A stretch of 64,000 bases of DNA, taken from Magnetospirillum sp. SS-4 (GTDB taxonomy: Bacteria; Pseudomonadota; Alphaproteobacteria; Rhodospirillales; Magnetospirillaceae). The notes under the pieces were generated by a model that saw only the letters and a list, made by a program, of their open reading frames with translations, had not been told where the DNA came from and searched no databases. The DNA is taken from assembly GCF_902729425.1 (NCBI RefSeq), contig NZ_CACVCH010000024.1, positions 62,001 to 126,000 on the forward strand. Direction: 5' to 3'. Made by a program: the position numbers and the translations under genes. This document shows, one piece after another, positions 12,775-64,000 of this stretch. Position 1 is the stretch's first letter; every line of letters begins with the position of its first letter.

Positions 12775-13002
12775 ATGACGGACGATGAATGGCAGGCGCA
12801 TGTGACGCGTCAGGCGGCAAAGGCGATCGGTGAATGGCTCGAAGCCCGCGGAAGACTGCACCAGCCCATCAGGGTTCTCGCCCTGTGGGAACTGGAGGCC
12901 ATGGCTCAGGCGGCCATCAGCAGCTTCGTGGTGCTGGGCTGTTCGCGGATCAAGGACGAGCCGGGCGAACACCCGGACCTGACCCGGCTCTTGCTGGCCT
13001 GA
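12775..13002 (+). CDS. Small hypothetical phage protein
   Basis: 75 residues from ATG 12775 (MTDDEWQAHVTRQ). An in-frame ATG at 12727, overlapping the DUF669 gene by 8 bp, would add 16 residues; neither start has a clear ribosome site. It is helical, with IRVLALWELEAMAQAAISSF. It lies between the SSB-like gene and a zinc-ribbon gene, and its end overlaps the next gene's likely start. No function can be assigned. Confidence 0.65.
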   Translation: MTDDEWQAHVTRQAAKAIGEWLEARGRLHQPIRVLALWELEAMAQAAISSFVVLGCSRIKDEPGEHPDLTRLLLA

Positions 13003-13370: not shown

Positions 13371-13381
13371 AGGCCGCCGCC

Positions 13382-14179: not shown

Positions 14180-14808
14180 ATACCCGCCCCCTCAGCTACG
14201 ACGTGCTCCAGGTGCGCGACACCAGCGGCCCGCGCACCGTCGCCCGCCTGTGGTGCGCCCAATGCGGCGAGACGCTGGACCTCACCCTGAACAGCACCCA
14301 TCACGCCGATGGTGTCGAGCGCATGGCTCGGGCCAAGGGCTGGGACTGCGACAAGAACCGCCCCCGCCGCACCCTCTGCCCCGACTGCAAGGCCCGCCCG
14401 CGCCCGCCGGCTACGCCGGCAAACGTTGTGACCCGGAGCTCCGCCCCGCCGGTCAAGGCGGCAGCGCCGAAACCCATCAAACCAACCATCCCGAAGGAAA
14501 TGCCGATGACCACGCCCGCCCTCCGTCCCGCCACTCCCGACGAACGCATGCGCATCCGCCACAAGCTGGACGAGGTGTTCGACGATTCCAAGGGCATGTA
14601 CCTGGACGGCTATTCCGATCAGCGCGTCGCCGAGGACCTGAAGCTGCCGCGCAAGATGATCGAGCAGATCCGCGAGGCGGCCTATGGCCCCATCCGCACC
14701 GATCCCGAACTCGACCAGCTGCGCACCGACATCGCAGCCCTGGTCGCCCAGGCCAGCACCCTGGCCAACCGGCTGGCCGAGGTCGAGAAACGCTTCCAGC
14801 CCCGGTGA
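14176..14808 (+). CDS. Zinc-ribbon and HTH-like hypothetical protein
   Basis: 210 residues, ATG overlapping the nuclease stop by 4 bp. The N-terminus has two cysteine pairs, WCAQCGETL and LCPDCKARP. A Pro/Lys linker (residues about 75-115) leads to a C-terminal domain with RIRHKLDEVFDD, YSDQRVAEDLKLPRKMIEQI, which reads as an HTH, and a coiled coil. Nucleic-acid binding in the replication module is likely. No specific family is recognised. Confidence 0.75.
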   Translation: MNTRPLSYDVLQVRDTSGPRTVARLWCAQCGETLDLTLNSTHHADGVERMARAKGWDCDKNRPRRTLCPDCKARPRPPATPANVVTRSSAPPVKAAAPKPIKPTIPKEMPMTTPALRPATPDERMRIRHKLDEVFDDSKGMYLDGYSDQRVAEDLKLPRKMIEQIREAAYGPIRTDPELDQLRTDIAALVAQASTLANRLAEVEKRFQPR

Positions 14809-14813
14809 CGATA

Positions 14814-16118: not shown

Positions 16119-19100
16119 TCGACCTCAACGACGTCTGGGCGCCGCCGGCCCGCCATGACCTGCACAACATCCGCGACCGCCTCGCCGCGACGGCACCGGA
16201 TTGGCTGCCGGGGCTGTTTCCGCAGGCGCGGTGGTCGCAGGATCGGCGGACGTTGCGTTGCGCCGACCTGTCGGGCCGGGCGCCGCGGAAGGAAGGGTCG
16301 TGCATTCTCCACCTCGCCGGCCCCCACGCCGGCTGGGGCTTCGACCACGCCACCGGCGAGAGCGCCGGCCCCATCGACCTGATCCACCACGCCACCGGCC
16401 TCGCCGACCGCGATCTGTTCGAGGAGGCCGCCCGGCTGGCCCGCCTCGATCTGCCCGCGCCACCACGAGCCAACAACCCCAAGCCCACCCACGACCTGGA
16501 AGTGGCCCGCATCATCGGCTCTGCCCAACCGCTGGCCGGGACCGTCGGCGAGACCTATCTCCGCCACCGCGGGGTCGGCAATCCCCGTTCGCCCGATCTG
16601 CTGTACCACGATGACCTTCCCGACTTCGAGGGACGGCGCGGCTGGCCGGGTCTGGTGGGCGTCGTCCGTGACGGCGCCGGCAATCCCACCGGCGGCATCC
16701 ACCGCACCTTCCTGCTCGACGATGGCTCGGGCAAGGCCCCGCCGGGCAAGAAGATGCTGGGGGCTGTCGATGGCGGTTCGGTTCGGCTCGCGCCGCTGCC
16801 TGCCGACGGGCATCTCGGTGTCGCCGAGGGCATCGAGACCGCCCTGTCGGCCTGGGCCATCTTCGGCATCCCCACCTGGGCGGCGTTGTCGGCGGGCGGC
16901 ATCCGCCAATGGCAATGGCCCGAGGGCACAAGCCGCGTCACCATCTTCGCCGATGCCGGCGACGCCGGTCAGCAGGCCGCCGCCACCCTGGCTGATCGCC
17001 TCAATGCCGCCGACATCCCGTCCACCATCGTCTCGCCCCTGCACGGCGACGATTTCAACGACGATCTGCGCAAGGGCGCGGCGCTCGCACATTATAATAA
17101 TGTGCAGCCCGCCGCCGAGGAGGCTCCGACCTTCGAGAGCCTGATGGCACAGGTGGACAGCCTGCAAGACGGCGATGCCATCGCCCTGGGCCGCCTCTAT
17201 GCCGAGATCGCCAGTTGCAACCTGGAGATTTTCCAGCAGGACAAGTTATTCGCCGCCATCAGGAAGCAGGCCGGCATCGGCATCCCCACATCGCGGAAAC
17301 AGGTGGCCGCCCTGCGGAAGACGCTGGATGCAGCGGCGGCGGATCACGAGGCCGACGATGTCAGCTTCGACGACGAAGTGCGGCAGATGGCCACCCTCTT
17401 TCCGCTGCCCCGCACCGAGGGCGTCGACCTGCGTCTGTGCCGCGCGTCCCGCTCCGGCGAGATCCTGGTCCATCGCAACATGGGCAGCGGCAAGGATGGC
17501 CGAACCATGTGGCAGGCGGTCGCCAGCCCCTTCGGCATTCCCTCCCGGTTGCGCTATCTCGACCACGACGATGCCTACGGCCTGCGCGTCGTCATTCGCG
17601 ACATGCAGGGAAACCCGCGAGTGGTGGACTTTCCCCGCGCAGCCATTGCCCAGCAGGGGGCGCAGGAAATCCGCTCCGCCCTCTACGCCGCTGGTCTGCG
17701 CACCCTGGCCGATGGCGATCAGGTCGCAGTCATGCTGCTGAAGGCCGCCAATCCCCAGGCCGAGACCCTGGTGGTTAGCCGTCCCGGCTGGCATCGGCTG
17801 GAGGGGCGCGACCACCCGGTGTTCGTCACCCCGGCCGGGCAGGCCATGGGCGAGGCCACTGCGCTGGAATTGGCCGCCAATGCCCGCAGCGAGTCCGTGC
17901 GTGGCAATCTCGACGGCTGGAAGGCGGCGGTGGTGGCGGCGACCTCGGTCACCGGCTGTCCGCATTTCCTGCTCGGCGTCCTGGCCGGGTTCTCGGGTGT
18001 GGTGCAGTCGCTGGCCGGGTTGGACAGTTGCGGCCTCAATCTCAGCGGCCTGTCGTCCAGCGGTAAGACCACGGCGCAGAAGCTGGCGGTGTCCGCCTGG
18101 ACCGCCACCGGCATCGGCGACGGCCTGCTGCAATCCATGCGCTCCACCGAGAACGCCGTGGAAGTCTTCGCCCAGGCCGCCAGCGGCACCGTTCTGGCCC
18201 TGGACGAGCTGGCCCATGTCGATGGCCGCACCATCGCCAAGCTGATCTACGCCATTGCCGGTGGGCAGGGGAAAGCCCGCATGACCGCAGGCGCCATGCT
18301 CAAGCAGCGTTACGCCTGGTCGACCTATGCACTGCTGTCCAGCGAATGCTCCCTGGAAGAAAAGGTCCGCGCCGACGGCGGCGCCTGGATCGCCGGCATG
18401 GCGGTGCGCATCGTCGACGTGGACGTCACCGACGTGGACCGTCACGTTCCGGCCTCCACCCTGCAGGCCATCGCGGGGATCAACAATCACCATGGCCACG
18501 CCGGACCCGCCTTCGTCGAACGGATCATCGCCGCCGACATGCACCGCACGCCCGACGCGCTGCGTGACCGCATCCTGACCGAGGCCCGCAAGCTGGCGGG
18601 CGACACCACCGATTCCGCCCGCATCCGCGCCGCCACCTGTCTGGCCCTGCCGCTGGTCGCCGGGCAACTGGCGCAGGAATTCGGGTTGCTGCCGTCGTTC
18701 ATCGACATCGAGACCCCGGTGCGCTGGGCGTGGAGCCGCTTCCAGAAATCGTCCGATGCCGAGGCGCTGACCCCCGGCGATCAAGTCGTCTCTATGCTGC
18801 GGGCCTGGATCGCCGAACGCTGGGACGTCACCATCAAGGCTGTGGACGCGGGCGAATACGGCTTCGACCGCAAGCACAACAACCGCGAGGCCGTCGCCTG
18901 GTACGACCGCGACGCCATCTACATCCCGGCCCACCGCCTGCGCGAGGCGGCAGGCGAAACCCTGAAGGCGGCGCAGATCAGCAGGATCCTGACCGACCGC
19001 GATATGCTGGCCCGCCGAGGCGACGAAAAGCGGGCGGCGATCCGTTACATCCCCGGCATCGGGCGTATCGACGCCTATGCGCTGAAACGCTCCGAACTGG

Positions 19101-19141
19101 GCCGCAGCGGGCGCTGGGTCGACGAAGACGACGACCTGTAG
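16115..19141 (+). CDS. Primase-helicase fusion: Toprim plus DUF927-type ATPase
   Basis: 1008 residues. The N-terminal third resembles phage DNA primases: a CHC2-like region with GWGFDHATGESAGPIDLI, then a Toprim domain with GVAEGIETALSAWAIFG and VTIFADAGDAGQQAA. The C-terminal part is a DUF927-like P-loop ATPase with Walker A LSGLSSSGKTTAQKLA and Walker B TVLALDELAHVDGR, followed by a winged-helix-like end. It should prime and unwind phage DNA. The ATG at 16115 overlaps the helicase stop by 4 bp. It is the last gene of the tightly coupled early operon before a gene-poor gap. Confidence 0.9.
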   Translation: MIDLNDVWAPPARHDLHNIRDRLAATAPDWLPGLFPQARWSQDRRTLRCADLSGRAPRKEGSCILHLAGPHAGWGFDHATGESAGPIDLIHHATGLADRDLFEEAARLARLDLPAPPRANNPKPTHDLEVARIIGSAQPLAGTVGETYLRHRGVGNPRSPDLLYHDDLPDFEGRRGWPGLVGVVRDGAGNPTGGIHRTFLLDDGSGKAPPGKKMLGAVDGGSVRLAPLPADGHLGVAEGIETALSAWAIFGIPTWAALSAGGIRQWQWPEGTSRVTIFADAGDAGQQAAATLADRLNAADIPSTIVSPLHGDDFNDDLRKGAALAHYNNVQPAAEEAPTFESLMAQVDSLQDGDAIALGRLYAEIASCNLEIFQQDKLFAAIRKQAGIGIPTSRKQVAALRKTLDAAAADHEADDVSFDDEVRQMATLFPLPRTEGVDLRLCRASRSGEILVHRNMGSGKDGRTMWQAVASPFGIPSRLRYLDHDDAYGLRVVIRDMQGNPRVVDFPRAAIAQQGAQEIRSALYAAGLRTLADGDQVAVMLLKAANPQAETLVVSRPGWHRLEGRDHPVFVTPAGQAMGEATALELAANARSESVRGNLDGWKAAVVAATSVTGCPHFLLGVLAGFSGVVQSLAGLDSCGLNLSGLSSSGKTTAQKLAVSAWTATGIGDGLLQSMRSTENAVEVFAQAASGTVLALDELAHVDGRTIAKLIYAIAGGQGKARMTAGAMLKQRYAWSTYALLSSECSLEEKVRADGGAWIAGMAVRIVDVDVTDVDRHVPASTLQAIAGINNHHGHAGPAFVERIIAADMHRTPDALRDRILTEARKLAGDTTDSARIRAATCLALPLVAGQLAQEFGLLPSFIDIETPVRWAWSRFQKSSDAEALTPGDQVVSMLRAWIAERWDVTIKAVDAGEYGFDRKHNNREAVAWYDRDAIYIPAHRLREAAGETLKAAQISRILTDRDMLARRGDEKRAAIRYIPGIGRIDAYALKRSELGRSGRWVDEDDDL

Positions 19142-19351
19142 GGATCAGGCACCCGCCTGCCGCCGCAGGGCGGCGCGATATCCCTGCCAGACCGGCGACG
19201 GCCTCCTCGCAGCTCCCCTCATTGCCAGATAGCGCTTCAGTTCCTCTCCCTCACGCACTCACCCCATCTGAGGGGTCTAAGTCATCGGGACGCGGGAAAA
19301 TCCTTCTTCCTAAAAAATATATTGCGCCCACCGTGCCCTGGGCTTATAAAA

Positions 19352-23388: not shown

Positions 23389-24642
23389 ATGCATCTTGCT
23401 CTCTCCGAGCCGGCTCCCCCGGCCGTCGGCGCGATGTCGTGCGCCGCCGAGCTGGTCTACGGCTCGGTGTGCAGTGGCATCGAAGCTGCCACGGTGGCGT
23501 GGGAGCCGCTGGGCTGGAAGCCGGCGTTCTTCGCCGAGATCGAACCATTCCCCTCCGCCGTGCTGGCGCACCGACATCCGGCCATCCCCAACCTGGGTGA
23601 CATGACCGCCATCGACGGGTCGGCGTGGCGGGGAAGGATCGACGTGCTGGTGGGCGGCACGCCCTGCCAGGCGTTCTCGGTGGCGGGCCGACGCAGGTCG
23701 CTGGACGACGCTCGAGGCAATCTCGCCCTTACCTTCGTGGACCTTGCCGATGCTATCGCCCCCGCCTGGATCGTCTGGGAGAACGTCCCCGGCGTGCTGT
23801 CCACCCGCGACAATGCCTTCGGGTGCCTTCTGGGCGGATTGGCCGGAGAAGATGGTCCGTTGCTCCCGCCAGGGAGAAAATGGTCGGACGCTGGTGTTGT
23901 CGTTGGACCCGCGCGAACAGTCGCGTGGCGGGTGCTCGACGCCCAATATTTCGGCCTGGCCCAACGCCGCCGCCGTGTGTTCGTTGTCGCGGGTGCTGGA
24001 GACCGGGCCGATCCCGTCGAGGTACTATTTGAGCGCGAAAGCGTGCGCCGGGATTATTCGCCGCGCCGCCAACCGGAACAAGGTCTTGCCGGAACCCTTG
24101 CGGGCGGCGCTCGCCGCCGTGGCGGCTTCAGTCTCGACGACCTGCCCGTCGCTTTCGGCGGTAACAACACCTCCGGTCCCATCGACGTCGCCACCGCACT
24201 GAATGCCTGCGCCTCGGCCAGCGGGCGGATGGACTTCGAGACCGAGACCTTCGTCACCCATTCCCTGCGCGGCGAGGGCTTCGACGCCTCGGAGGACGGA
24301 ACCGGGCGCGGCACCCCGCTGGTGCCGGTCGCCTTCGACTGCAAGGCCGCCACCCCGGTTGCCGGCGAGACCGTCGCGCCGACCTTGCGGGCGATGAATG
24401 CTGTTGGCCGCGACAATGCCGGTGGCCAGTTGGCTGTCCAGCACGGCTTGGCGGTGCGCCGCCTGACGCCGACCGAATGCGAGCGGCTCCAGGGGTTCCC
24501 GGACGACTACACCCGCATCTCCTGGCGCGGCCGCCCTGCGGATCGCTGTCCCGACGGCCCGCGCTATCGGGCGCTGGGCAACAGCATGGCGGTGCCGGTG
24601 ATGGCCTGGATCGGCCGCCGCATCGAAGGAACCAGGTCGTGA
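23389..24642 (+). CDS. Phage cytosine-C5 DNA methyltransferase
   Basis: 417 residues from ATG 23389; an ATG at 23434 is an alternative because the first has no clear ribosome site. Conserved motifs are SVCSGIEAATVAWEPLGW (I), GGTPCQAFSVAGRR (IV, catalytic Pro-Cys), IVWENVPGVLST (VI, Glu-Asn-Val), FGLAQRRRRVFVVA (VIII), RLTPTECERLQGFPDDY (IX) and YRALGNSMAVPVMAWIG (X). The region between VIII and IX is the target-recognition domain. It should methylate C5 of cytosine in a short site to protect phage DNA from host restriction. It opens the modification block. Confidence 0.95.
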   Translation: MHLALSEPAPPAVGAMSCAAELVYGSVCSGIEAATVAWEPLGWKPAFFAEIEPFPSAVLAHRHPAIPNLGDMTAIDGSAWRGRIDVLVGGTPCQAFSVAGRRRSLDDARGNLALTFVDLADAIAPAWIVWENVPGVLSTRDNAFGCLLGGLAGEDGPLLPPGRKWSDAGVVVGPARTVAWRVLDAQYFGLAQRRRRVFVVAGAGDRADPVEVLFERESVRRDYSPRRQPEQGLAGTLAGGARRRGGFSLDDLPVAFGGNNTSGPIDVATALNACASASGRMDFETETFVTHSLRGEGFDASEDGTGRGTPLVPVAFDCKAATPVAGETVAPTLRAMNAVGRDNAGGQLAVQHGLAVRRLTPTECERLQGFPDDYTRISWRGRPADRCPDGPRYRALGNSMAVPVMAWIGRRIEGTRS

Positions 24643-55070: not shown

Positions 55071-55309
55071 GCATTCCGTCCCTCGGCCAGGGTCTCCACC
55101 ACGGTCAACACTCGCATGGCGACGTCATGTTCCGGCCAGCGGGCCAGCCGAGCCAACCGGGCCGCTCGTTCCGCCGCCTCGGTCCTGGCGGCGCATCCGA
55201 ACAGGGTGACCAGCCGCCGGGCGGCATGCTGTACCTCAATCTCGGGTATGGGTATGCGCGGCGTGATCATGGCCTCAGGCTGCCACGGGCGGGTGTCAGA
55301 AACGGTCAT
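55067..55309 (-). CDS. Small hypothetical protein
   Basis: 80 residues from ATG 55309, which overlaps the PLD gene end by 14 bp; its own end overlaps the repeat-protein start as ATGA. Residues about 20-80 are helical and rich in Ala and Arg (PEIEVQHAARRLVTLFGCAA, RWPEHDVAMRVLTVVETLAE). It might be a TraD-like conjugation fragment, but this is not supported further. The coupling implies it is a real gene of the operon. Confidence 0.65.
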   Translation of the reverse strand: MTVSDTRPWQPEAMITPRIPIPEIEVQHAARRLVTLFGCAARTEAAERAARLARLARWPEHDVAMRVLTVVETLAEGRNA

Positions 55310-55850
55310 GTCGCCTGGTCTCCCCGCTCGTTTCCGCCAGTCTTGCCTCGAAGGGGGGCGAGTGATCGGCGTGTCGGTGCCAATTGGCCGCGTACTGCCC
55401 CGCCAGGGTCTCGTCGTGTAGGATAACAAGGTTTTCGGCGTTCCGGCTCTGGGCCGAGCGGGTGAAATTGAACGATCCCGTCACCACCGTGCTCCCATCG
55501 ATCACCATCACCTTGTTGTGGGCGATGGCGTGGTCTCCATCGACCAGAATGTGAATTCCGGCGGCGGCAAGCTGTTGTGCCACAGCGCTGCCGGCCTTCT
55601 GCCCCAGCGCGCCACCGTCGAGGATCACGCTTATCGTGACCTGGCGGCGACGGGCGTCGGACAGCGCCTGGGCTATGGCGGGATTGGTGAAGCCATAGGC
55701 CTGAACCAGGACCTCGCGCCGGGCGGTGGCGAGCTCAGTCACAAGCATACCGGTGCAGTCTTCGCCCGGCGTGAAGCACACCTGGGCATCGCCGGCCCAG
55801 GCGGGTGGCATGATCAATAACGACAGTGCCAAAGCCCCACAGATCCGCAT
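55296..55850 (-). CDS. Secreted PLD-family endonuclease (Nuc-like)
   Basis: 184 residues. The signal peptide (MRICGALALSLLIMPPAWA) is followed by CFTPGEDCTGMLVTELATAR, VLVQAYGFTNPAIAQALSDA, VTISVILDGG and the HKD motif AHNKVMVIDGSTVVTGSFNF (HxKxxxxD), then NAENLVILHDETLAGQYAAN. A single HKD motif implies a dimer like Nuc. It should act as a periplasmic DNase, which could degrade incoming DNA of rival phages or plasmids. It is the first gene of the minus-strand operon at the right prophage end. Confidence 0.9.
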   Translation of the reverse strand: MRICGALALSLLIMPPAWAGDAQVCFTPGEDCTGMLVTELATARREVLVQAYGFTNPAIAQALSDARRRQVTISVILDGGALGQKAGSAVAQQLAAAGIHILVDGDHAIAHNKVMVIDGSTVVTGSFNFTRSAQSRNAENLVILHDETLAGQYAANWHRHADHSPPFEARLAETSGETRRHDRF

Positions 55851-55894
55851 CGCAGCCGCCGGTTGATCTTGCCCACTTCATTTGACGGCCTGTC

Positions 55895-55913
55895 CGTGTC
55901 AGAATTGGACACG
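55895..55913. promoter_or_regulatory. Candidate operator of the WYL regulator
   Basis: CGTGTC (55895-55900) and GACACG (55908-55913) form a perfect 6-bp inverted repeat with a 7-bp spacer, centred about 30 bp before the probable GTG start of the WYL gene. A TTGACG (55882-55887) upstream could be the -35. WYL regulators such as BrxR/CapW repress defence operons by binding inverted repeats like this. Confidence 0.5.
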
Positions 55914-55934
55914 TTTCATGGACTGGGGGCGGCG

Positions 55935-56921
55935 GTGCGCTACGAGAAGGCCGACAACCTGCTGCAATTGGCGCTGGAGATGCAGGCGGCGCGCGGCGGC
56001 CTGTCGTTGAAGGATATCGAGGACAAATTCGGAATCGGCCGGCGCACCGCCATGCGCATGCGCGATGCGGTCCTGCGCAATTTCCCTCAGTGCGAGGAGG
56101 TGGAAACCGATGAGCGGATCAAGCGCTGGCGAATTCCGTCCGGCACCCTGGATCGCCTGATCATCTTCACCGCCGATGAACTGGCCGCGCTGGAGTCGGC
56201 CATCCGGCTGCTCGACCGCGACAACCGCGAGGACGAGGCGGCGAACCTCTCCACGCTTTCCGGCAAGCTGAGGGCGCTTCTGCGTCCCGACGTGGCCCGC
56301 AAGGTGGAGCCCGACCTGGAAGCCATGCTGGAGGCCGAGGGTCTGGCCATGCGTCCCGGACCGCGCCCGCGGATCAAGGTGTTCGTGGTCGAGGACCTGC
56401 GCGAGGCGATCACGGCCTGCCGCAAGGTCAAGATCCGGTATAAAAACCGCCACACCAAGCGGACCGCCGAGCGGCTGGTTCATCCCTACGGCTTCCTCCA
56501 TGGTCACCGCAACTACCTGGTCGGCTGGCATGAGAACCCCAAGGCCAACAAGGTGGCCCTGTTTGCCCTTCCCAACGTTGAAGAGGTGGAGATCCTCGCC
56601 GAAACCTTCGTCCGCGATCCCGGCTTCGACCTCGCTGGCTTCGCCGCCCGCTCCTTCGGCCTGTTCCAGGAGGAGCCCTATTCGGTGGCCTGGCGCTTCG
56701 CTCCCGAAGCGGCCGAGGATGCCGCCGATTTCGTCTTCCACCCGACCCAGACCATGGAAAAGCAGCCCGACGGCTCGCTGATCGTCCGGTTTATCGCCGG
56801 CGGCGACCTGGAGATGGCCTGGCACCTCTACTGCTGGGGCGACAAGGTCGAAGTACTGGAGCCAGCGAAGTTGGCCGAGATGGTCAACGAAAGCCGGGTG
56901 GCGTGGGGGGCGCTGCCGTGA
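55935..56921 (+). CDS. WYL-domain transcriptional regulator
   Basis: 328 residues from GTG 55935, just after a GGGGG tract; in-frame TTG starts further up (55863) would place the operator inside the gene. An N-terminal winged HTH (MRYEKADNLLQLALEMQAAR, LSLKDIEDKFGIGRRTAMRM, RDAVLRNFP) is followed by the WYL domain with ITACRKVKIRYKN, VHPYGFLHGHRNYLVGWHEN and a C-terminal WCX-like extension (DLEMAWHLYCWGDKVEVLEP). WYL proteins sense nucleotide-type ligands and control phage-defence genes. It directly precedes the ATPase/helicase/MORC operon on the same strand. Confidence 0.93.
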   Translation: MRYEKADNLLQLALEMQAARGGLSLKDIEDKFGIGRRTAMRMRDAVLRNFPQCEEVETDERIKRWRIPSGTLDRLIIFTADELAALESAIRLLDRDNREDEAANLSTLSGKLRALLRPDVARKVEPDLEAMLEAEGLAMRPGPRPRIKVFVVEDLREAITACRKVKIRYKNRHTKRTAERLVHPYGFLHGHRNYLVGWHENPKANKVALFALPNVEEVEILAETFVRDPGFDLAGFAARSFGLFQEEPYSVAWRFAPEAAEDAADFVFHPTQTMEKQPDGSLIVRFIAGGDLEMAWHLYCWGDKVEVLEPAKLAEMVNESRVAWGALP

Positions 56922-57177: not shown

Positions 57178-57360
57178 ATGTCAGATGAAAACTGGATAGA
57201 GGAACTGGCGGTTAGGGCCGTCGAAATCGAAAAGCGGCACGCTCACGACCTGGTGAACGCGCAGACGGAACGCCGTCGCCGCATCCGGGATGCCGTCGAC
57301 GAGGTGGCCGGGCAGATCATCGCCGCGTCCCAGGACGCGGACGCCCTGGCAAGCAACTGA
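57178..57360 (+). CDS. Small hypothetical protein opening the defence operon
   Basis: 60 residues; ATG 57178 follows GGGGAGGGGG, a strong ribosome site, and is preferred to a start at 57019. The sequence is one or two charged helices: MSDENWIEELAVRAVEIEKR, TERRRRIRDAVDEVAGQIIA. It sits 13 bp before the DndD-like ATPase gene. It may be an antitoxin-like or assembly subunit. Nothing specific is recognised. Confidence 0.7.
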   Translation: MSDENWIEELAVRAVEIEKRHAHDLVNAQTERRRRIRDAVDEVAGQIIAASQDADALASN

Positions 57361-57373
57361 AGGCGGGCGGGAC

Positions 57374-59401
57374 ATGAAGATCAAGAAGATCACCCTCTCG
57401 AACTTCCGCCAGTTCTACGGCGACCAGGACATCGAGATCTCCGACGACCCGGAGAAGAACGTCACCCTCATCCATGCCCAGAATGGCGTGGGTAAGACCA
57501 CCATTCTGAACTCGGTCCTGTGGACCTTCTACAACCAGCCCACCAAGAAGTTCCTGGAGCCGGAGAAAATAATCAACTTCGCCTCCTACAAGGAAGGCAA
57601 CCGGACCGCCTCGGTGGGCATCGAGTTCAGCCACGAGGGCACCGATTACCTGGCTCAACGGTTCCACCGCCAGGACCGCGGCTATCCCGAGCAGGTGTTC
57701 AAGGTCCACAAGATTATCAACGGCGACTACCAGGAGCTCCGCACCCCCGACCCGTTCGTGCAGTCGGTGATGCCCCAGGCCATGGCGCCGTACTTCTTCT
57801 TCGACGGCGAACATGCCGAGACCTTCAGCGCCACCCATAATCACAAGGAAGTGGCCAAGGCCATCCGCAATATCCTCGGCTGCAACATCGCAGAGTTGGC
57901 CATCGAGGATCTGACCTCCTGCGCCAAGAAGCTGGTGAAGGAAATCGCCGACATCCCCGACGCCAGCGACCTGAAGCAGGCCGAGCAGGAACTGAGTCGT
58001 CTGGAGACCAACGCTCAGCAGTTGGACCAGAAGATTGAGGTGCTGCAGGAACGTCGCACCACCTTCCAGGAGACGGTCGACGAACTCAGCCGCCAGCTGG
58101 CCTCCCTGCAGATCGTCGCCGCCAAGCAGCAGACCCGCGCCGCCAAGGAGAAGTCCCTCGCCGACGTCCGCAGGCGGATCGCGGATGCGCAGGTGTCCAT
58201 CGTCAGCTGGGCAGGCCGCCCCGATACCCTGCGCCTGGTCGCGGAGAAGCTGTCCGGCTCGTCGCTCGATTTCATCGACGAGGAGACCCTGAAGGGCCGC
58301 ATCCCCAGCCCGTACAACGAAACCTTCGTGAAGGGGCTCCTGCAGGCCCACAGCTGCATCTGCGGCCGCCATCTGCCCGAGGGCTCCGACGAGTTCAAGG
58401 CGGTGGCCAAACTCCTCGAGTCGGCTGGCAACGCCCTGGTGCTGAACCGGGTCGTGAAGGCCCGCTCCAAGTGCGAGGAGCTCCGCAAAGACAAGGAATC
58501 CTCGGTCCGCTACCTGCGCAAACTACAGGAGGAGATCGGCAGGTTGCGTCAGGACGAGCAGGACCTCGAGCAGGAAATCGCAGCCATCTCCAAGGAGATC
58601 GCCTCCATCGACGCGAGCGAGGTGAAGGAGAAGGAAGAGGCCCGGCGCAAGGCGCAGAACGAAATCCGCGCCATTACGGAGGCCATCGGCGCGGCCTTGC
58701 ACCAGAAACGGAATGCAGACTCCGACTTCGCCGAGGCCAAGCGGCGCTACCAGAAATTATCAGGCGAGAATAATAGAGCCAGACCGCTCAAGGTGCGCCA
58801 GGAGCTGGCTGAGGCGGCGGCTGGGTTTCTGAGTAGTGAACTCAAGGGCCATGAAAACTCGGCCCGCATCCAAATTCAAAGTGAGGTGTCCAGGATCATC
58901 AAAGAGACCGCGCGGCGTGACTACAAATTTCGGCTCTCTCAAAATGATTATCGAATGGAGCTGCTGTTTGAAGATGGCAGCATGGTGCCGCGGAGCACCG
59001 GCGAGAGCCAGTTGCTGAGCCTGGCATTCATCGCGGCCCTGGTCCGCTACGCCAAGATGCGCAGCAATGCCAACGGCCGCATCCTCATCCCCGGCATCGT
59101 CGCCCCGCTGATCCTCGACTCGCCGTTCGGTCAGCTCGACGACGTCTACCGCGAGGCGACCGCCCGCTTCGTTCCCCTGCTCGCTGAGCAGGTCGTGGTG
59201 CTGGTTTCTCGTTCCCAGGGCGACGAGAACGTCCTGGGGGCCATGCGGGCCAAGGTCGGCGCCGAGTACGTGCTGACGGCCGAGAACACGGCGCCCCGCG
59301 GCGAAAAGCGGGAAGAGGTCATTGCCATCAACGGCCGGACCTACCCCCTGACCAGCTATGAATGTGCGGTCGACAAGACCCGTGTCCAGCAGGTGAAGTG
59401 A
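57374..59401 (+). CDS. DndD/Rad50-like SMC-family ATPase
   Basis: 675 residues from ATG 57374. The N-terminal half-ATPase has KKITLSNFRQFYGDQDIEIS, Walker A LIHAQNGVGKTTILNSVLW, and AMAPYFFFDGEHAETFSA, a DndD hallmark. Long coiled-coil arms flank a hook-like HSCICGRHLPEG (CxC rather than CxxC). The C-terminal half has the ABC signature RSTGESQLLSLAFIAALVRY and Walker B VAPLILDSPFGQLDD, then LVSRSQGDENVLGAM. DndD belongs to phosphorothioation systems, but such ATPases also occur in other defence operons. Here it is paired with a helicase and a MORC-type ATPase, with no dndB/C/E in view. Confidence 0.9.
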   Translation: MKIKKITLSNFRQFYGDQDIEISDDPEKNVTLIHAQNGVGKTTILNSVLWTFYNQPTKKFLEPEKIINFASYKEGNRTASVGIEFSHEGTDYLAQRFHRQDRGYPEQVFKVHKIINGDYQELRTPDPFVQSVMPQAMAPYFFFDGEHAETFSATHNHKEVAKAIRNILGCNIAELAIEDLTSCAKKLVKEIADIPDASDLKQAEQELSRLETNAQQLDQKIEVLQERRTTFQETVDELSRQLASLQIVAAKQQTRAAKEKSLADVRRRIADAQVSIVSWAGRPDTLRLVAEKLSGSSLDFIDEETLKGRIPSPYNETFVKGLLQAHSCICGRHLPEGSDEFKAVAKLLESAGNALVLNRVVKARSKCEELRKDKESSVRYLRKLQEEIGRLRQDEQDLEQEIAAISKEIASIDASEVKEKEEARRKAQNEIRAITEAIGAALHQKRNADSDFAEAKRRYQKLSGENNRARPLKVRQELAEAAAGFLSSELKGHENSARIQIQSEVSRIIKETARRDYKFRLSQNDYRMELLFEDGSMVPRSTGESQLLSLAFIAALVRYAKMRSNANGRILIPGIVAPLILDSPFGQLDDVYREATARFVPLLAEQVVVLVSRSQGDENVLGAMRAKVGAEYVLTAENTAPRGEKREEVIAINGRTYPLTSYECAVDKTRVQQVK

Positions 59402-59865
59402 TGCGCACCATCCGCCGAAGCAAGAAGTACGATGACCTGGTCTCGCGGCTGGCCGAGAAGCCGGTCAACGACCAGCAGAAGATCTTCCCAACCTACAAGG
59501 CGCTGATGTGCTTCGCCGCCTGCCTGGGCTACGATGCCGGCGAGGAAGGCGATGTCAGCGACCCAATCGACTTCGTCGACTCCCGCGTCATCGAACGTGA
59601 TGCCGACTGCATGGATCTCATCTACCTCATCGCTCTGGCCAAGAGCCGGGACGCCAACATCCTCAAGGACGGCAGCGAAAGCGAGACCCAGTTGGCAAGC
59701 GCCTTCGAGCGGTTCTCCGAGGGCGGTCTTGGGGTGCTCCAGAAGTGGATGAACGAGACGCCGTCCGACGCCTACGGCCATGAGGCCATCATCGTTGCCA
59801 TGCAGAAGTACGGCTACCTGCCCGCGCCGAATGCCAAAGCCTCCCAGGAGGAGCCGACGTTTTGA
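59401..59865 (+). CDS. Small protein resembling Dnd-associated protein 4
   Basis: 154 residues; its ATG shares one base with the ATPase stop (TGATG). IRRSKKYDDLVSRLAEKPVN, FPTYKALMCFAACLGYDAGE, DFVDSRVIERDADCMDLIYL, FERFSEGGLGVLQKWM matches the general pattern of the small proteins found beside dnd genes (my recollection of the family called dnd system-associated protein 4; needs a profile search). An AGGAGGAG site for the next gene lies in its end, and it overlaps that gene by 4 bp. Confidence 0.75.
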   Translation: MRTIRRSKKYDDLVSRLAEKPVNDQQKIFPTYKALMCFAACLGYDAGEEGDVSDPIDFVDSRVIERDADCMDLIYLIALAKSRDANILKDGSESETQLASAFERFSEGGLGVLQKWMNETPSDAYGHEAIIVAMQKYGYLPAPNAKASQEEPTF

Positions 59866-62036
59866 GCCTGGCAGCCCTCTCGCTGAAACCCGTCTACCGG
59901 TCGGGCCGGGACGATCTGGTCAAGGACTTCTACATCCCCTGCCTCAAGGCGTCGGTGAAGTACGACCGCGCGGTCGGCTTCTTTTCGGCCTCCATGCTGT
60001 CTCTGGCGGCCCAGGGCCTGAGCGCCCTGGTCGAACGCCAGGGCGCCATGCGCCTGATCGTCGGCGGCGCCCTGACCGAGGACGAAGCCGAAGCCGTGAT
60101 GCGCGGCTACACCGAACGGGCCAAGACCGAGGCGGAAGAGCGCATTCACCAGGAGGTCCAGGCCCTCATCAAGGACATCTCGGACAGCCTGTTCGAATGC
60201 CGCCTGCATGCGCTGTCGAACCTCATTGCCTTCGGACGGCTCGACATCAAGGTCGCGCTGACCCGCAAAGGCATGTACCATGAGAAAATCGGTGTCTTTT
60301 ACGACGGCGAGGGCAACTCGGTGGTCTTCGCCGGGTCGGCCAACGAGTCGCAGAGCGCGCTTTCGCCCGACTTCAACTTCGAGTCCATTTCGGTCTATCC
60401 GTCCTGGAAGGAATCCGTCCGCGACTACCACGACGAATTCTCCGGTGGCTTCCAATCTCTGTGGGACAACAACGAGAACCGGGCCATCGTCATCGACTTT
60501 CCAACCGCGGCCAAGGAAGAGCTGATCAAGTTCGCCACCTCCCGGGCCGGGATGGTGACACCCGACCTGGAATTGGCCATCTGGGACGAGATGCGGCGGA
60601 AATACGCGCCCAAGGAGGAGAGCAAGACGACCTCCTCGTTGCCCAGCCTCCCCACGGTCTACAAGGGACGTGAGTTCGACATACGGCGTCACCAACGCTT
60701 GGCACTGAACAAGTGGCAGGCGGCCGACTACCTCGGCATCCTCGCCCTGGCCACCGGCGCCGGTAAGACCGTCACCGCCATCTACGCCGCCACGAAGATG
60801 CTGATGACCAAGGGACGCTTGGCCCTGATCGTCGCTGTCCCGTATCAGAGCCTAGCCGAGCAGTGGGTCGAGGAAATGGCCCTGTTCGGCTGGCGCGCTA
60901 TCCCCTGCTTCGGCGGCTGGCAGAACTGGCTGGAGAAGGCCAGCGAGCTGTCGATGTCCTTCCAGAGCGGCGGCATCCAGGCCCTGTCCTTCGTGGTCGT
61001 GAACGCCACCCTGACCTCGGACAAGTTCCAGGACGTGCTGAAGCGCCTGCCCAGCGAGGATTTGATGTGGGTGGGTGACGAGTGCCATCACCATGGCAGC
61101 GAGCGGCTAGCCAACAACATCCCCAAGCAGGCCCGCTACCGCCTGGGCCTGTCGGCGACACCGTTCGACTACATGTCGGAAACCCGAAATGAACGGGTCC
61201 AGGATTGCTACGGCTCGGTGGTCAGCACCTACGGCCTCAAGGAGGCCCTCGAGGACGACGTCCTCACGCCCTACGACTACCATGTCCATGTCGTCGAGTT
61301 GACGGACAAGGAGACCCAGGACTACATCGAGATCTCCAACAAGATCCGCAGCCTGATGCTCTCCGGCGCTGACGCCGAGGAGAGCCAGGCGCTGACGGCG
61401 GCCCTGATGCAGCGGGCCCGCATCCTGGGTTCGGCCTACAACAAGCTGGGGCTGCTGCGCGACCTGCTGGCCGAACGCGGCGTCGAGCCCATGACGCTGC
61501 TCTATTGCGGCGACGGCTCGGTGGAAGACGAGGACGAAGCCGAGTCCATGCGGCAGGTCGACGCCGTGTCCCTGCTGGTGCGGGAATACGGCTGGCGCAC
61601 CAGCCACTTCACGGCCCATGAAAGCCGCAAGGAGCGTCAGGCGATCCTGGACAACTTCCGCCTCGGTATCATCGACGGCCTGGTGGCTATCCGATGCCTG
61701 GACGAAGGCGTCGACGTCCCGTCCTGCCGCACGGCCTACATCATGGCGAGCTCGCGCAATCCGCGGCAGTTCATACAACGCCGTGGCCGTATCCTGCGCC
61801 GGTCGTCTGGCAAGGACTTCGCCGTCATCCACGACTTCCTGGTCCGCGTGCCGAAGATGGGCGATGACAGCTATTCGCTGGAGCGCAGCCTCGTCAGCGC
61901 CGAGCTGAAGCGCGTCGCCGAGTTCGCTGGCCTAGCCCGCAATTTCACCCAGGTATTCGAGAAGGTGAAGCCGCTGCTGGCCGAGTATGACTTGTTGCAC
62001 GAACTCATTGTCGGGTCATTGCAGCACCAAGATTAG
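59862..62036 (+). CDS. PLD-nuclease/SF2 helicase fusion
   Basis: 724 residues from TTG 59862 after AGGAGGAG. The N-terminal PLD-like domain (residues about 1-200) has VKYDRAVGFFSASMLSLAAQ and YHEKIGVFYDGEGNSVVFAG with ANESQSAL; the Asp is one residue later than in classic HxKxxxxD. The SF2 helicase follows: LALATGAGKTVTAIYAATKM (I), MWVGDECHHHGS (II), YRLGLSATPFDYM (III), IDGLVAIRCLDEGVDVPSCR (V) and FIQRRGRILRRSSGK (VI). This architecture occurs in anti-phage restriction complexes, where the helicase moves the nuclease on DNA. Confidence 0.93.
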   Translation: MSLAALSLKPVYRSGRDDLVKDFYIPCLKASVKYDRAVGFFSASMLSLAAQGLSALVERQGAMRLIVGGALTEDEAEAVMRGYTERAKTEAEERIHQEVQALIKDISDSLFECRLHALSNLIAFGRLDIKVALTRKGMYHEKIGVFYDGEGNSVVFAGSANESQSALSPDFNFESISVYPSWKESVRDYHDEFSGGFQSLWDNNENRAIVIDFPTAAKEELIKFATSRAGMVTPDLELAIWDEMRRKYAPKEESKTTSSLPSLPTVYKGREFDIRRHQRLALNKWQAADYLGILALATGAGKTVTAIYAATKMLMTKGRLALIVAVPYQSLAEQWVEEMALFGWRAIPCFGGWQNWLEKASELSMSFQSGGIQALSFVVVNATLTSDKFQDVLKRLPSEDLMWVGDECHHHGSERLANNIPKQARYRLGLSATPFDYMSETRNERVQDCYGSVVSTYGLKEALEDDVLTPYDYHVHVVELTDKETQDYIEISNKIRSLMLSGADAEESQALTAALMQRARILGSAYNKLGLLRDLLAERGVEPMTLLYCGDGSVEDEDEAESMRQVDAVSLLVREYGWRTSHFTAHESRKERQAILDNFRLGIIDGLVAIRCLDEGVDVPSCRTAYIMASSRNPRQFIQRRGRILRRSSGKDFAVIHDFLVRVPKMGDDSYSLERSLVSAELKRVAEFAGLARNFTQVFEKVKPLLAEYDLLHELIVGSLQHQD

Positions 62037-62070
62037 AAAGACCTGATTATACCGAACTGCAGGAGCCGAT

Positions 62071-63405
62071 ATGACCGATCACGATGACGATGTCGATGTT
62101 CTGCCGACAAAGTCCTTATTCGTCGAGATGCTGACTCGGGACATCGGACTAAATAGGGCAATTATTGACTTGGTTGACAACAGCGTTGACGGAGCTCGAC
62201 GCCTTCGCCCTGAACCGGATGCGGACCTCAGTGACCTTAAAATAGAAATTACAGTCAACGGCGATACATTCAAGATAAAGGACAATTGTGGCGGCATAGG
62301 AATAGACCTTGCCAAGCGATATGCTTTCAGAATTGGAAGGCCAAAGGACATGCCTTCGACTCCTAATTCCGTTGGTCAATTCGGCGTCGGGATGAAGCGA
62401 GCACTGTTTAAGTTCGGCAGACAGTTTAAGGTAATTTCTAAAAGCGCCGCTGATAGATTCATTCTGGATGTGGACGTCGATGTCTGGGAGGCCGACTCGA
62501 CTCAGTGGCGCTTTAAGTTCACTGAGGCCGAAAGAGAGCTTGATATACCTGAGGATGAGACCGGAACAGAAATCATTGTGACGCGCTTGCGTAGCGCCAC
62601 GGCATCATCCTTTGGGCTCACTACATTCCAGAACTCTTTGAGCCGGGAGATTGCATCAGCCCAGCAGCAATACATCGACAGAGGGTTGAAAATCGTATTT
62701 AACGGTACGCCATTACTTTCTTCTCCATGGACACTTCTCAAGGCAGAAGGCTTTGAGCCTGAGAAAATCGAAAAGGAGCTCCTGGTTAACGGAGCAAGGG
62801 TCCTGGTCAGGATTTTTGCCGGAGTCCAGGCCCCCAATCCCCGTCAAGCGGGCTGGTACATCTTCTGCAATGGGCGAATGGTGCTGGAAGCCGATCAGAA
62901 TGCATTGACCGGCTGGGGCCGACTGGCTGAAACCGACGGGGTGGTTGCACCAAAATATCACAACCAGTTCGCAATGTTCCGTGGTTACGTTTTCTTTGAT
63001 TCTGAGGATGCCTCTCTTCTCCCCTGGAATACCACCAAGACTGGTGTGGACGAGTTTTCAGAAATATACAAAGCAGTATTTCTCGATATGCTCGAACCGA
63101 TGCGGCGTGTTCTCGATTTTCTGCGGCGCCTGGACGACGAAAAGGATTCGCCTGAACAAGAGCGCCCGCTCAACGATGCGATCAAGCGCGCGGCGCCTTT
63201 GCGTATCAGAGATATTTCCAGGAGCGGCCCATTTATCTATCCAGAGCGCGCAATCAAGAAAGGGCCCCCTTTGGTCTCTATCCAATACCGCAGACCAAGG
63301 GACCAGATTGAGGCGCTTCAAAACGCTCTTTCCGCTCGCTCAGCCCGCGAAGTCGGTGAAACAACTTTCGACTTGTATTATAGCCAGTTCTCGTCGGAGA
63401 GCTGA
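62071..63405 (+). CDS. GHKL (MORC/Hsp90-like) ATPase
   Basis: 444 residues; ATG 62071 after AGGAG. The Bergerat ATP-binding motifs are clear: NRAIIDLVDNSVDGARRL (N box), FKIKDNCGGIGIDLAKRYAF (G1) and SVGQFGVGMKRALFKFGRQF (G2), then an S5-like second domain (YIFCNGRMVLEADQNALTGW). Prokaryotic MORC and paraMORC ATPases have been linked by gene neighbourhoods to restriction systems with SF2 helicases, as here. Base composition shifts to A+T-rich compared with the helicase just upstream, which suggests this part of the operon was acquired separately. Confidence 0.9.
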   Translation: MTDHDDDVDVLPTKSLFVEMLTRDIGLNRAIIDLVDNSVDGARRLRPEPDADLSDLKIEITVNGDTFKIKDNCGGIGIDLAKRYAFRIGRPKDMPSTPNSVGQFGVGMKRALFKFGRQFKVISKSAADRFILDVDVDVWEADSTQWRFKFTEAERELDIPEDETGTEIIVTRLRSATASSFGLTTFQNSLSREIASAQQQYIDRGLKIVFNGTPLLSSPWTLLKAEGFEPEKIEKELLVNGARVLVRIFAGVQAPNPRQAGWYIFCNGRMVLEADQNALTGWGRLAETDGVVAPKYHNQFAMFRGYVFFDSEDASLLPWNTTKTGVDEFSEIYKAVFLDMLEPMRRVLDFLRRLDDEKDSPEQERPLNDAIKRAAPLRIRDISRSGPFIYPERAIKKGPPLVSIQYRRPRDQIEALQNALSARSAREVGETTFDLYYSQFSSES

Positions 63406-63407
63406 AG

Positions 63408-64000
63408 ATGGCGAAGAGCTACAGGAAAATTGATTATCGGATTCGCCCGGCGAAATATGCTGAGCGAAATATGCTATGCGCCGCCTTCCAGAAGATTCGA
63501 TTCGGGAGCATCGAAAGCTACCAATATATTGGGATGGGCTCCGTCTACTTCAGTGACTTCATCCTATTCCATCGGGCCCTCGGAATAAGCAGGATGATAA
63601 GCATTGAGAAGGAAGAAGGAGACCAACAGCGCTTCCTGGACAACCTTCCCTTCTCGTTCATCGAGATGAACTGGGGAACGACAACAACCCAGCTTCCAAA
63701 CATAGATTTGTCACTGCGCAGTATCGCATGGCTAGACTACGATGGACGCTTGTCGAGATCGGTATTGGACGATGTCCGCAGCTTCGTGTCCCGCGCATGC
63801 AGTGGCAGCATCCTCATCGTGTCTGTTCAGTGCAATCCAGAGGGCTTCTCTCCGACAGAGCCGACCAAAAATGTCCAGGCGATCCGCGATGAACTTGGCG
63901 ATCCATACGTCGAGATTAACCTAACCGATGCGGACCTACTTGGCTGGGGCACGGCTAAGGTTTTCAGAAAAGCAATTATAAATCAAATTGAAGAAGCTCT
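63408..64000 (+). CDS. Rossmann/methyltransferase-like protein (3' partial)
   Basis: 197 residues are visible before the window ends; the ATG is 2 bp after the GHKL gene stop. YQYIGMGSVYFSDFILFHRA, LGISRMISIEKEEGDQQRFL, SIAWLDYDGRLSRSVLDDVR and GSILIVSVQCNPEGF read as a Rossmann-like sheet with the spacing of a SAM methyltransferase (YxGMGS loop, acidic residue at the end of strand 2 in ISIEKE, LDYDG in the motif IV position). The specific family is unknown to me. The tight spacing makes it part of the MORC unit. Confidence 0.75.
   Translation, partial: MAKSYRKIDYRIRPAKYAERNMLCAAFQKIRFGSIESYQYIGMGSVYFSDFILFHRALGISRMISIEKEEGDQQRFLDNLPFSFIEMNWGTTTTQLPNIDLSLRSIAWLDYDGRLSRSVLDDVRSFVSRACSGSILIVSVQCNPEGFSPTEPTKNVQAIRDELGDPYVEINLTDADLLGWGTAKVFRKAIINQIEEA

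What the first reader, a model, noticed from the sequence alone, without database searches (positions are those of the whole stretch)
57178..64000. Candidate anti-phage system: DndD-like ATPase, Dnd-associated-like protein, PLD-SF2 helicase, MORC ATPase and Rossmann-like protein without Dnd modification genes
Five or six tightly spaced genes combine a DndD/Rad50-type ATPase, a small protein like those next to dnd loci, a nuclease-helicase, a GHKL/MORC-type ATPase and a methyltransferase-like fold, all behind a WYL regulator. DndD-type and MORC-type ATPases are each known from modification-linked defence, but I do not know a named system with this full set, and dndB/C/E are absent from view. 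It may be a restriction-only or self-marking relative. The operon runs off the window, so further members are likely.
Basis: partly seen in the sequence, partly recalled or inferred. Interest (0 to 1): 0.8.

Follow-up and report, generated by a model that had tools for sequence, protein, structure and literature searches.

The report
Add-on gene pair in phage-defence locus
Four of the genes match a known phage-blocking operon sitting right beside the DNA-sulphur-marking genes it depends on, and the last two are a separate, apparently unnamed pair of genes found in bacteria and prophages, usually beside an enzyme that chemically marks DNA.

Summary
The genes are real, but the locus is not Dnd-less. 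Nineteen bases past the last gene, beyond the window, lie dndE-D-C-B, then dndA: a complete phosphorothioate (PT) modification set, each over its curated cut-off. Four window genes match the known PT-dependent PbeABCD operon. So the 'restriction-only / self-marking' reading fails.

The open part is the last two genes, a MORC-type ATPase and a Methyltransf_35 protein (MT35). They are compositionally foreign (GC3 0.55/0.61 against 0.79-0.89) and form a conserved pair: 78 of 79 scanned genome loci, 69 of 77 viral contigs. A cytosine-C5 methylase lies near MORC in 63 of 79 genome and 75 of 77 viral loci; in 8 of 79 a Dnd set stands there instead, never both. The partner changed at least three or four times. 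In 16 of 21 P2-like contigs MORC, MT35 and methylase are the only sizeable genes at the site.

I infer a mobile, modification-coupled silencing pair plugged into a Dnd-Pbe locus. Function is untested; ten full-text searches showed me no name for it. New variant of a known kind.

The parts
55863..56921 (+). WYL/WCX transcription regulator upstream of the operon (same strand; membership in the system not shown)
   Evidence: PF13280 and PF25583 over cut-off
57178..57360 (+). PbeB-like small protein (60 aa)
   Evidence: Position directly before pbeC and size; small ORFs before pbeC in L263 and L266 share an I-E-(K/Q)-R pattern seen by eye. No family hit for the longer 112-aa frame
57374..59401 (+). 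PbeC: DndD-like ABC ATPase with CxC motif
   Evidence: PADLOC PbeC E 1.6e-206, though PADLOC PbeC models also hit the canonical DndD next door best; TIGR03185 152.8 bits, below cut-off; C-I-C at residue 330 of the 677-aa frame, no CxC in that canonical DndD
59401..59865 (+). PbeD (154 aa, dnd_assoc_4-like)
   Evidence: TIGR04062 E 2.6e-15, 56.8 bits, cut-off 74.25; TGATG overlap with pbeC; 25% identity to a small protein at the same place in L263
59862..62036 (+). PbeA: PLD (HKD) nuclease-like domain fused to SF2 helicase
   Evidence: PADLOC PbeA E 2.4e-242; TIGR04095 475.6 bits, cut-off 600; ResIII and Helicase_C over cut-off, PLDc_2 just below
62071..63405 (+). MORC-type GHKL ATPase, first gene of the add-on pair
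63408..64000 (+). Methyltransf_35 (MT35), class I SAM-methyltransferase fold, second gene of the pair; the gene runs on to 64358, beyond the window (L003 9408-10358). The Dnd genes that follow lie wholly beyond the window, in L003: DndE 10378-10776 (-), DndD 10766-12757 (-), DndC 12739-14280 (-), DndB 14270-15364 (-), DndA 15452-16588 (+), PT-associated putative methyltransferase 16625-19234 (+); add 54000 for window-equivalent positions

Best explanation
The locus is a DndABCDE phosphorothioate system with a PbeABCD restriction operon, into which a separate two-gene cassette, MORC-MT35, has been inserted. DndABCDE writes PT marks on host DNA, and PbeABCD stops DNA that lacks them (shown for a relative in PMC6459918, inferred here). 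The MORC-MT35 pair is a mobile effector that needs a self-mark written by a neighbouring enzyme and does not care about its chemistry: usually 5-methylcytosine, here PT. Proposed action (inference): the MORC ATPase dimerises on ATP and clamps or loops DNA. MT35, a SAM-binding methyltransferase-fold partner, couples the clamp to recognition, or modifies a target once the clamp closes. Unmarked invader DNA is silenced without needing a dedicated nuclease. Shown here: gene content, Dnd and Pbe identity by sequence, the conserved pairing, foreign composition, coupling to either methylase or Dnd but not both in the loci scanned, partner switching, predicted folds. Inferred: antiviral function, dependence on the mark, the clamp mechanism, the role of MT35.
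For: Dnd genes over cut-off next door. Pbe genes by PADLOC and CxC motif; G073 (L263) has pbeC-D-A and dndB-C-D-E-A in a row without the pair. Pair GC 0.51 and GC3 0.55/0.61 against 0.61-0.67 and 0.79-0.89 for neighbours; pair lower in GC than its flanks in 65 of 66 genome loci measured. MORC followed by MT35 in 78 of 79 scanned genome loci and 69 of 77 viral ones; anchored on MT35 instead, MORC precedes it in 7 of 8 genomes, the eighth being cut inside MT35. C5 methylase in 63 of 79, each within 2.3 kb of a MORC frame; DndC in 8 of 79; both in none; Fisher p 4.9e-7, loci not independent. PT-coupled pairs are not one clade (AU p 1.7e-58); the window's pair sits in a 98/95-supported group of 7 with 6 rows not PT-coupled. 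The pair follows directly on DptFGH in L096 and lies inside DISARM in L028. P2-like prophages carry it between portal and gene A. MORC-like and methyltransferase folds.
Against: No experiment. The pair is an optional rarity at Dnd and Pbe loci: 0 of 12 other DndC loci and 0 of 7 other PbeA-like loci. A C5-methylase gene does exist in the window, in phage-like DNA 37 kb upstream (23389-24642), and about five more elsewhere in the genome, so the pair could use an unlinked methylase. Eight genome loci have neither C5 methylase nor DndC; two of these have an N6/N4 methylase, in one I saw no methylase, and five are degenerate or cut by a contig end. One methylase locus (L102) also has a DndA-like hit, but no DndC. 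At Dnd-Pbe and DptFGH loci nucleases are present, and in 8 viral loci an HNH endonuclease family lies 4-8 genes upstream, so nuclease-free action is not required there. The MORC label rests mainly on the S5 signature: by Foldseek E-value TRAP1/Hsp90 rank first, and the best sequence-profile match is HtpG, ahead of MORC2.
Confidence: 0.55

Rival explanations
1. Passenger: MORC-MT35 is an independent defence cassette that landed in a Dnd-Pbe island and does not use PT marks; it works alone or with an unlinked C5 methylase.
For: Foreign composition; absent from 7 of 7 other PbeA-like loci and 12 of 12 other DndC loci fetched; C5-methylase genes elsewhere in the genome; defence genes cluster (recalled).
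Against: If the methylase were still needed, PT-neighboured pairs should mostly keep one: the other loci have it in 63 of 71, PT loci in 0 of 8, and the window locus has none for 37 kb upstream or in the 19.6 kb held downstream. The association arose more than once and is often immediate: same-strand after DndC-DndD and a HerA-like gene in L083, L103, L109, or 3 bp after DptH in L096.
Confidence: 0.25
2. Modification-side helper: MORC-MT35 helps the neighbouring enzyme write or maintain the mark (as plant MORCs help establish DNA methylation), and does not attack invaders.
For: Three-gene cassettes with a methylase and no other frame of 100 aa or more in 16 of 21 P2-like contigs; SAM-methyltransferase fold of MT35; Arabidopsis MORC role in RNA-directed DNA methylation (PMC8277788, title and abstract start in the listings).
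Against: DndC and C5 methylases share no chemistry (recalled), and DndC occurs without the pair in 12 of 12 other loci. In the window and L096 the pair continues the restriction operon (PbeBCDA, DptFGH) on the strand opposite to dndEDCB.
Confidence: 0.12
3. One reading: a single six-gene, Dnd-less, restriction-only or self-marking machine.
For: Tight spacing of all six genes on one strand; the Pbe-type + pair combination recurs in L087 and, less completely, L089 and L104.
Against: Complete dndABCDE begins 19 bp downstream. The two halves differ in composition and occur without each other in most loci seen.
Confidence: 0.03

Closest known systems
DndABCDE-PbeABCD PT-based antiviral system (Xiong 2019, PMC6459918, sections 8 and 11 and passages; CxC ABC-ATPase/DndE systems, PMC10853773, section 16 and passages)
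   Same: All modification genes plus PbeA (HKD-SF2), PbeB-like small ORF, PbeC with CxC, PbeD-like gene, adjacent to one another.
   Different: Has dndB, which the four haloarchaeal dndCDEA clusters of that paper lack; gene order B-C-D-A; dnd genes convergent; a MORC-MT35 pair inserted between. The parts read mention no such pair, and the terms MORC and GHKL do not occur in the held text of PMC10853773.
Bacterial MORC/paraMORC restriction-modification operons (Iyer 2008, PMC2292703, abstract and sections 4-6 read)
   Same: MORC ATPase with the GhXhhpXXRhl signature, described there beside cytosine methylases, Vsr and SF2 helicases, some with an HKD domain.
   Different: The MT35 partner gene and PT modification are not described in the sections read; the terms Dnd, phosphorothio and O-methyl do not occur in that text (its figures are not held).
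[not shown]
   Same: A cytosine methylase with an associated MORC-type protein; the window MORC has a weak MzaB hit (20.6 bits in PADLOC, 24.6 bits against a cut-off of 850 in NCBIfam).
DISARM
   Same: A Microvirga plasmid carries the pair inside a DISARM operon.
   Different: No drm hit in the rows shown for the window and L003 proteins (lists capped at 25 for the longest).
Shedu type I-D / paraMORC3 (VcSduA, PMC12137116, passages)
   Same: GHKL ATPase used in phage defence.
   Different: VcSduA has a fused C-terminal DUF4263 nuclease; the MORC here has no such Pfam hit.

Membership tests
Dnd phosphorothioate modification system | DndA, B, C, D and E genes | tested here: met
   All five over NCBIfam cut-offs within 7 kb beyond MT35; one DndC match in the genome. 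PADLOC scores SspA slightly above DndA for the desulfurase
Dnd phosphorothioate modification system | PT-linked DNA in the host | not testable with these tools
   Needs mass spectrometry
PbeABCD | PbeA: HKD/PLD domain fused to SF2 helicase | tested here: met
   PADLOC PbeA E 2.4e-242; ResIII and Helicase_C over cut-off, PLDc_2 at 24.6 bits just below 27; NCBIfam dnd_restrict_1 below its cut-off
PbeABCD | PbeC: ABC ATPase with CxC hook | tested here: met
   CxC at residue 330, none in the DndD of the same locus; PADLOC PbeC E 1.6e-206, a label that by itself does not separate the two, as the canonical DndD also hits a PbeC model best
PbeABCD | PbeD: small DndE cognate | tested here: inconclusive
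   dnd_assoc_4 E 2.6e-15 but under its cut-off; 154 aa against 152 aa in H. jeotgali; a DndE-like fold was not tested
PbeABCD | PbeB: small, fast-evolving protein | tested here: inconclusive
   60 aa against 66 aa; right place; faint shared pattern with L263 and L266
PbeABCD | PT-dependent block of viral replication without DNA cleavage | not testable with these tools
   Needs phage assays
MORC ATPase family | GHKL motifs plus S5 domain with GhXhhpXXRhl | tested here: met
   GWYIFCNGRMV in the window protein against the motif of PMC2292703; lysine of TTK in 106 of 107 rows; the usual catalytic Glu (recalled) is Asp in 102 of 107
MORC ATPase family | Closest solved structures are MORCs | tested here: inconclusive
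   [not shown]
MORC ATPase family | ATP-driven DNA clamping or looping | not testable with these tools
   Needs biochemistry
Methyltransf_35 / class I SAM methyltransferase | Rossmann methyltransferase fold with SAM-binding motifs | tested here: met
   [not shown]
MORC-type restriction-modification operons | DNA base methylase gene in the operon | tested here: inconclusive
   No C5 methylase in L003 or L004; nearest 37 kb upstream in phage-like DNA. Adenine methylases were not scanned for, and a putative PT-associated methyltransferase (TIGR04096) lies 6 kb downstream
DISARM | drmA, drmB, drmC | tested here: not met
   No PADLOC drm hit in the rows shown for the 7 window and 9 L003/L004 proteins scanned
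MZA | Full mzaA-E set | tested here: not met
   Only a weak MzaB hit in the rows shown
Shedu type I-D | C-terminal DUF4263 nuclease domain | tested here: not met
   No such Pfam hit in the 444-aa MORC
DndFGH (DptFGH) | dptF, G, H genes | tested here: inconclusive
   DptH not found in the genome, but no control genome rang; DptF and DptG not searched

The most novel reading that the evidence does not exclude
MORC-MT35 is a modification-agnostic, nuclease-free bacterial silencing effector: a SAM-bound MORC clamp that shuts down DNA lacking whatever self-mark its neighbour writes, be it 5-methylcytosine, N6/N4-methyl bases or phosphorothioate. Apparently orphan cytosine methylases of P2 and Pf prophages would then be its marking half, and eukaryotic MORC silencing a kindred mechanism. 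Here it has been plugged into a PT system as a second effector beside PbeABCD.
Probability: 0.3. Interest if true: 0.8.

Novelty: new variant of a known kind. Interest (0 to 1): 0.55.

Why it matters
The Dnd-Pbe part is known. The added value is a conserved two-gene module, MORC-MT35: 455 stretches encoding MORC relatives were found in a collection of 84,980 species (pairing checked in 79 loci), and 77 viral contigs. It sits with chemically unrelated self-marks and swaps between them. If it defends, one effector reads different marks, or the absence of any, which would make the question of how restriction modules recognise a modification directly testable. It would also give a purpose to supposedly orphan prophage C5 methylases: PfAC20's is described in print as an incomplete system (PMC11878078, passages). 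And it would offer a small bacterial model for MORC silencing.

Tried and rejected
Rejected: 'Dnd-less'; 'part of PbeABCD' (7 other PbeA-like loci lack the pair; three of these are weak PbeA matches and some flanks are short); DISARM, MZA and Shedu membership; Vsr as the restriction nuclease (41 of 63 methylase loci have it within the held flanks, 0 of the 16 others; Vsr repairs 5mC deamination, recalled, so it tracks the mark. A narrower gene-cluster count gave 29 of 63).

Led nowhere: sequence search of MT35 in solved structures (one match at E 0.56); promoter/terminator scan (no promoter-like site, terminators at chance level); paper searches for PF20553 or Methyltransf_35 (none) and for MORC with PT, DISARM, anti-phage or prophage terms (listings only, except papers named elsewhere). 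The fold searches listed no nuclease among the rows shown for either model, which is no proof of absence.

Dropped or limited: genome loci are the best 80 of 455 by similarity to the PfAC20 MORC, so the PT share may be biased. L088 (4.4 kb) fell under my 4.5-kb floor, leaving 79. L054, L095, L097 and L103 count as paired although my frames overlap by more than 60 nt. L033 is one frame matching both families and is not counted as paired; L110, counted, has MT35 in two pieces. L053 is the same locus as L029 (zero branch length). Viral contigs include near-copies. Of 28 other genomes with any DndC match I fetched only the 12 over the cut-off. Trees: 85 pairs by FastTree, then 35 rows I picked for the careful tree; the second clade test (window with L083, L098, L103; p 2e-4) was named after I had seen the first tree. 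In the P2-like count frames under 100 aa were ignored.
Full report
1. What is there. The window is G000:C29:62001-126000 of an unnamed 4.53-Mb genome. It is in class Alphaproteobacteria by inference: a 'same class' genome, G605, has a contig of the same length (347,917) as an Acetobacteraceae record, and the two loci are identical in my tree. Behind a WYL/WCX regulator run six + strand genes with overlaps or short gaps: pbeB-like 57178-57360, pbeC 57374-59401, pbeD 59401-59865, pbeA 59862-62036, MORC 62071-63405, MT35 63408-64358.

2. The locus continues, and it is a Dnd locus. L003 (the contig beyond the window) shows, 19 bp after the MT35 stop and on the opposite strand, dndE, dndD, dndC, dndB, then dndA and a PT-associated putative methyltransferase on the + strand. 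Each passes its NCBIfam cut-off: 122.6, 612.5, 664.8, 532.6, 495.1 and 534.4 bits.

3. Four genes match PbeABCD. PADLOC gives PbeC (E 1.6e-206) and PbeA (E 2.4e-242). The PbeC label alone is weak, because the canonical DndD of the locus also hits a PADLOC PbeC model best. The better evidence is C-I-C at residue 330 of PbeC, where that DndD has no CxC, as PMC10853773 (section 16 and passages read) says of CxC ABC-ATPases. That paper assigns PbeA to the HKD-SF2 protein, PbeB to the small protein and PbeD to the DndE cognate. In PMC6459918 (sections 8 and 11 and passages read) PbeB and PbeD have 66 and 152 aa, against 60 and 154 here; each of the four genes was needed for full protection, and no cleavage of viral DNA was seen. 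The window scores for TIGR03185, TIGR04062 and TIGR04095 lie below their curated cut-offs. A relative in the same class, G073 (L263), has pbeC-D-A followed by dndB-C-D-E-A on one strand, without the last two genes of the window.

4. The last two genes look like a foreign insert. MORC and MT35 have GC 0.511 and 0.507 and GC3 0.55 and 0.61. The WYL, Pbe (C, D, A) and Dnd genes around them have GC 0.61-0.67 and GC3 0.79-0.89. Of 64 reading frames chosen along the joined contig, MT35 and MORC are the second and third lowest in GC. In 66 of the 80 genome loci that could be measured, the pair is poorer in GC than its flanks in 65, by a median of 0.11.

5. They are a conserved pair. A scan of a collection of 84,980 species with a MORC alignment found 455 stretches encoding relatives; the best 80 were kept and 79 scanned. 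MT35 follows directly in 78 of 79: 74 within my gap limits and 4 with longer frame overlaps. The 79th, L033, is a single frame holding MORC and the end of MT35. In viral contigs 69 of 77 are paired; the other 8 are distant MORCs, seven of them 573-631 aa long and one cut by its contig end. Starting from MT35 instead, PF20553 was found in 5 of 398 genomes of the phylum sample and 5 of 385 of the class sample, 8 different genomes in all, the window's included. MORC precedes MT35 in 7, and the eighth contig begins inside MT35.

6. They go with DNA modification. In the held flanks a cytosine-C5 methylase lies in 63 of 79 genome loci and 75 of 77 viral ones (68 of the 69 paired). DndC lies in 8 of 79 (L078, L083, L087, L089, L096, L103, L104, L109), and never together with a methylase (Fisher p 4.9e-7, though loci are not independent). 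L102 has a methylase and a DndA-like hit but no DndC. All 63 methylase loci have a copy within 2.3 kb of a MORC frame, against about six such genes in the whole 4.53-Mb genome of the window. Of the 8 loci with neither, L044 and L080 have an N6/N4 methylase, L094 a NERD and a UvrD gene, L033 and L110 are degenerate, and L068, L098 and L112 are cut by contig ends. Vsr accompanies 41 of the 63 methylase loci and none of the 16 others, as expected of a repair enzyme for deaminated 5mC (recalled).

7. PT-coupled arrangements. In L096 (Cellvibrio) the pair follows DptF-G-H with MORC starting 3 bp after the DptH stop, and dndE-D-C-B converge on it. L078 (Billgrantia) has a PIN_8 protein, then the pair, facing dndE-D-C-B (DndE there below its cut-off), with no Pbe or Dpt seen. 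L083, L103 and L109 have DndC, DndD and a HerA-like protein (with a DndE domain in L083 and L109), then the pair, on one strand. L087 has the pair, PbeA, a CxC ATPase, a 188-aa protein, then DndB-C-D. L104 and L089 have Dnd, a PbeA relative and the pair, but the 712-aa protein of L104 has no CxC and no NCBIfam hit. The reverse holds weakly: 0 of 12 other DndC loci over cut-off and 0 of 7 other PbeA-like loci carry the pair, some with flanks cut by contig ends. So it is an optional add-on.

8. Partners were swapped. On a careful tree of 35 rows (MORC and MT35 joined), the nine PT-coupled rows are not one clade (AU p 1.7e-58), and strongly supported branches force at least four changes. The window's pair lies in a 98/95-supported group of seven whose six other members are not PT-coupled: five methylase loci and one cut contig. 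FastTree on 85 rows gives three changes against a mean of 8.7 in 1000 label shuffles; so the label is also conserved within groups. From, if PT-coupling arose four times and a methylase were merely kept at the rate of other loci (63 of 71), finding none would have a chance near 2 in 10,000. This is my rough arithmetic.

9. In phages. In 21 contigs with P2-type genes (named by PHROGs on one of them, L142, and by similarity in the rest) the pair lies between the portal and the replication gene A; in 16 of these MORC, MT35 and the methylase are the only frames of 100 aa or more there. E. coli EC77 shows the same three genes at the same place of a P2-family prophage, annotated only as ATP-binding protein, O-methyltransferase and DNA cytosine methyltransferase. 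I recall this site as the P2 old/tin defence hotspot; no call shows it. PHROGs has both proteins of L142 as families of unknown function. The filamentous phage PfAC20 begins with the same three genes, and the paper on it (PMC11878078, passages) calls its methylase an incomplete system. No nuclease gene of 100 aa or more stands between portal and gene A in those 16; in 8 other viral loci an HNH family lies 4-8 genes upstream of the pair.

11. How it most likely works. Shown: gene content, pairing, foreign composition, coupling to a mark-writing enzyme, exchange of that enzyme, folds. Established for a relative: Dnd writes PT, Pbe stops unmarked virus. Inferred: the pair is a second effector that spares marked DNA and clamps unmarked DNA, with MT35 linking SAM to recognition or response. 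The main rival is a passenger cassette that ignores PT; the lack of a linked methylase at all 8 PT loci and in the window locus speaks against it, the unlinked methylases of this genome for it.

Noticed in passing
L004 5972-8283 (same contig, about 80-82 kb in window-equivalent coordinates): Two Thoeris-type ThsB TIR genes (392 and 165 aa, PADLOC E about 1e-69) with a SLOG-family protein between them (PF18180); more defence genes beyond the Dnd locus.
   Followed up: partly
L004 3468-5360: A 630-aa protein with Schlafen AlbA_2 and RecG-type HATPase_c_4 domains.
   Followed up: no
window 23389-24642 and about 31-53 kb: A C5 DNA methylase gene, and lambda-type terminase, tape-measure and tail genes: phage-like DNA upstream of the finding. 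About five further C5 methylases lie on this and other contigs.
   Followed up: partly
window 55296-55850 (minus strand): A small PLD-domain protein (PF13091) just before the WYL gene, on the other strand, with what looks like a signal peptide.
   Followed up: no
L173, L175, L178, L181, L182, L183, L186, L187: Distant viral MORCs without MT35; seven are 573-631 aa with a C-terminal extension, and all but L187 (cut by its contig end) have a C5 methylase nearby. The extension, with no Pfam hit in the two tested, might stand in for MT35.
   Followed up: partly
L028 8986-11400: The pair lies inside a DISARM operon of a Microvirga terrae plasmid, between an MmeI-type gene and drmA.
   Followed up: yes
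L083 8489-9982, L109 8416-9978: DndE domain fused to a HerA-like ATPase directly upstream of the pair; a similar ATPase without a DndE hit in L103.
   Followed up: partly
L027 9590-13347, L143, L110 11391-12275: MT35 is broken into two pieces (about 2.8 kb apart in Sinorhizobium meliloti psymA); described only.
   Followed up: no
A8 column of window MORC residue 33: Asp instead of the usual GHKL catalytic Glu (recalled) in 102 of 107 MORC rows.
   Followed up: partly
L042, L034, L102: A second, longer MORC-like protein (546-582 aa) upstream of the pair, perhaps the paraMORC1 of PMC2292703.
   Followed up: no
G000:C29:54847-55098 (7 kb before the window): NOV_C domain in a 1183-aa frame.
   Followed up: no
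E. coli genomes: The methylase/MT35 part of the L142 cassette matches only 2 of 5,426 E. coli genomes by megablast.
   Followed up: no
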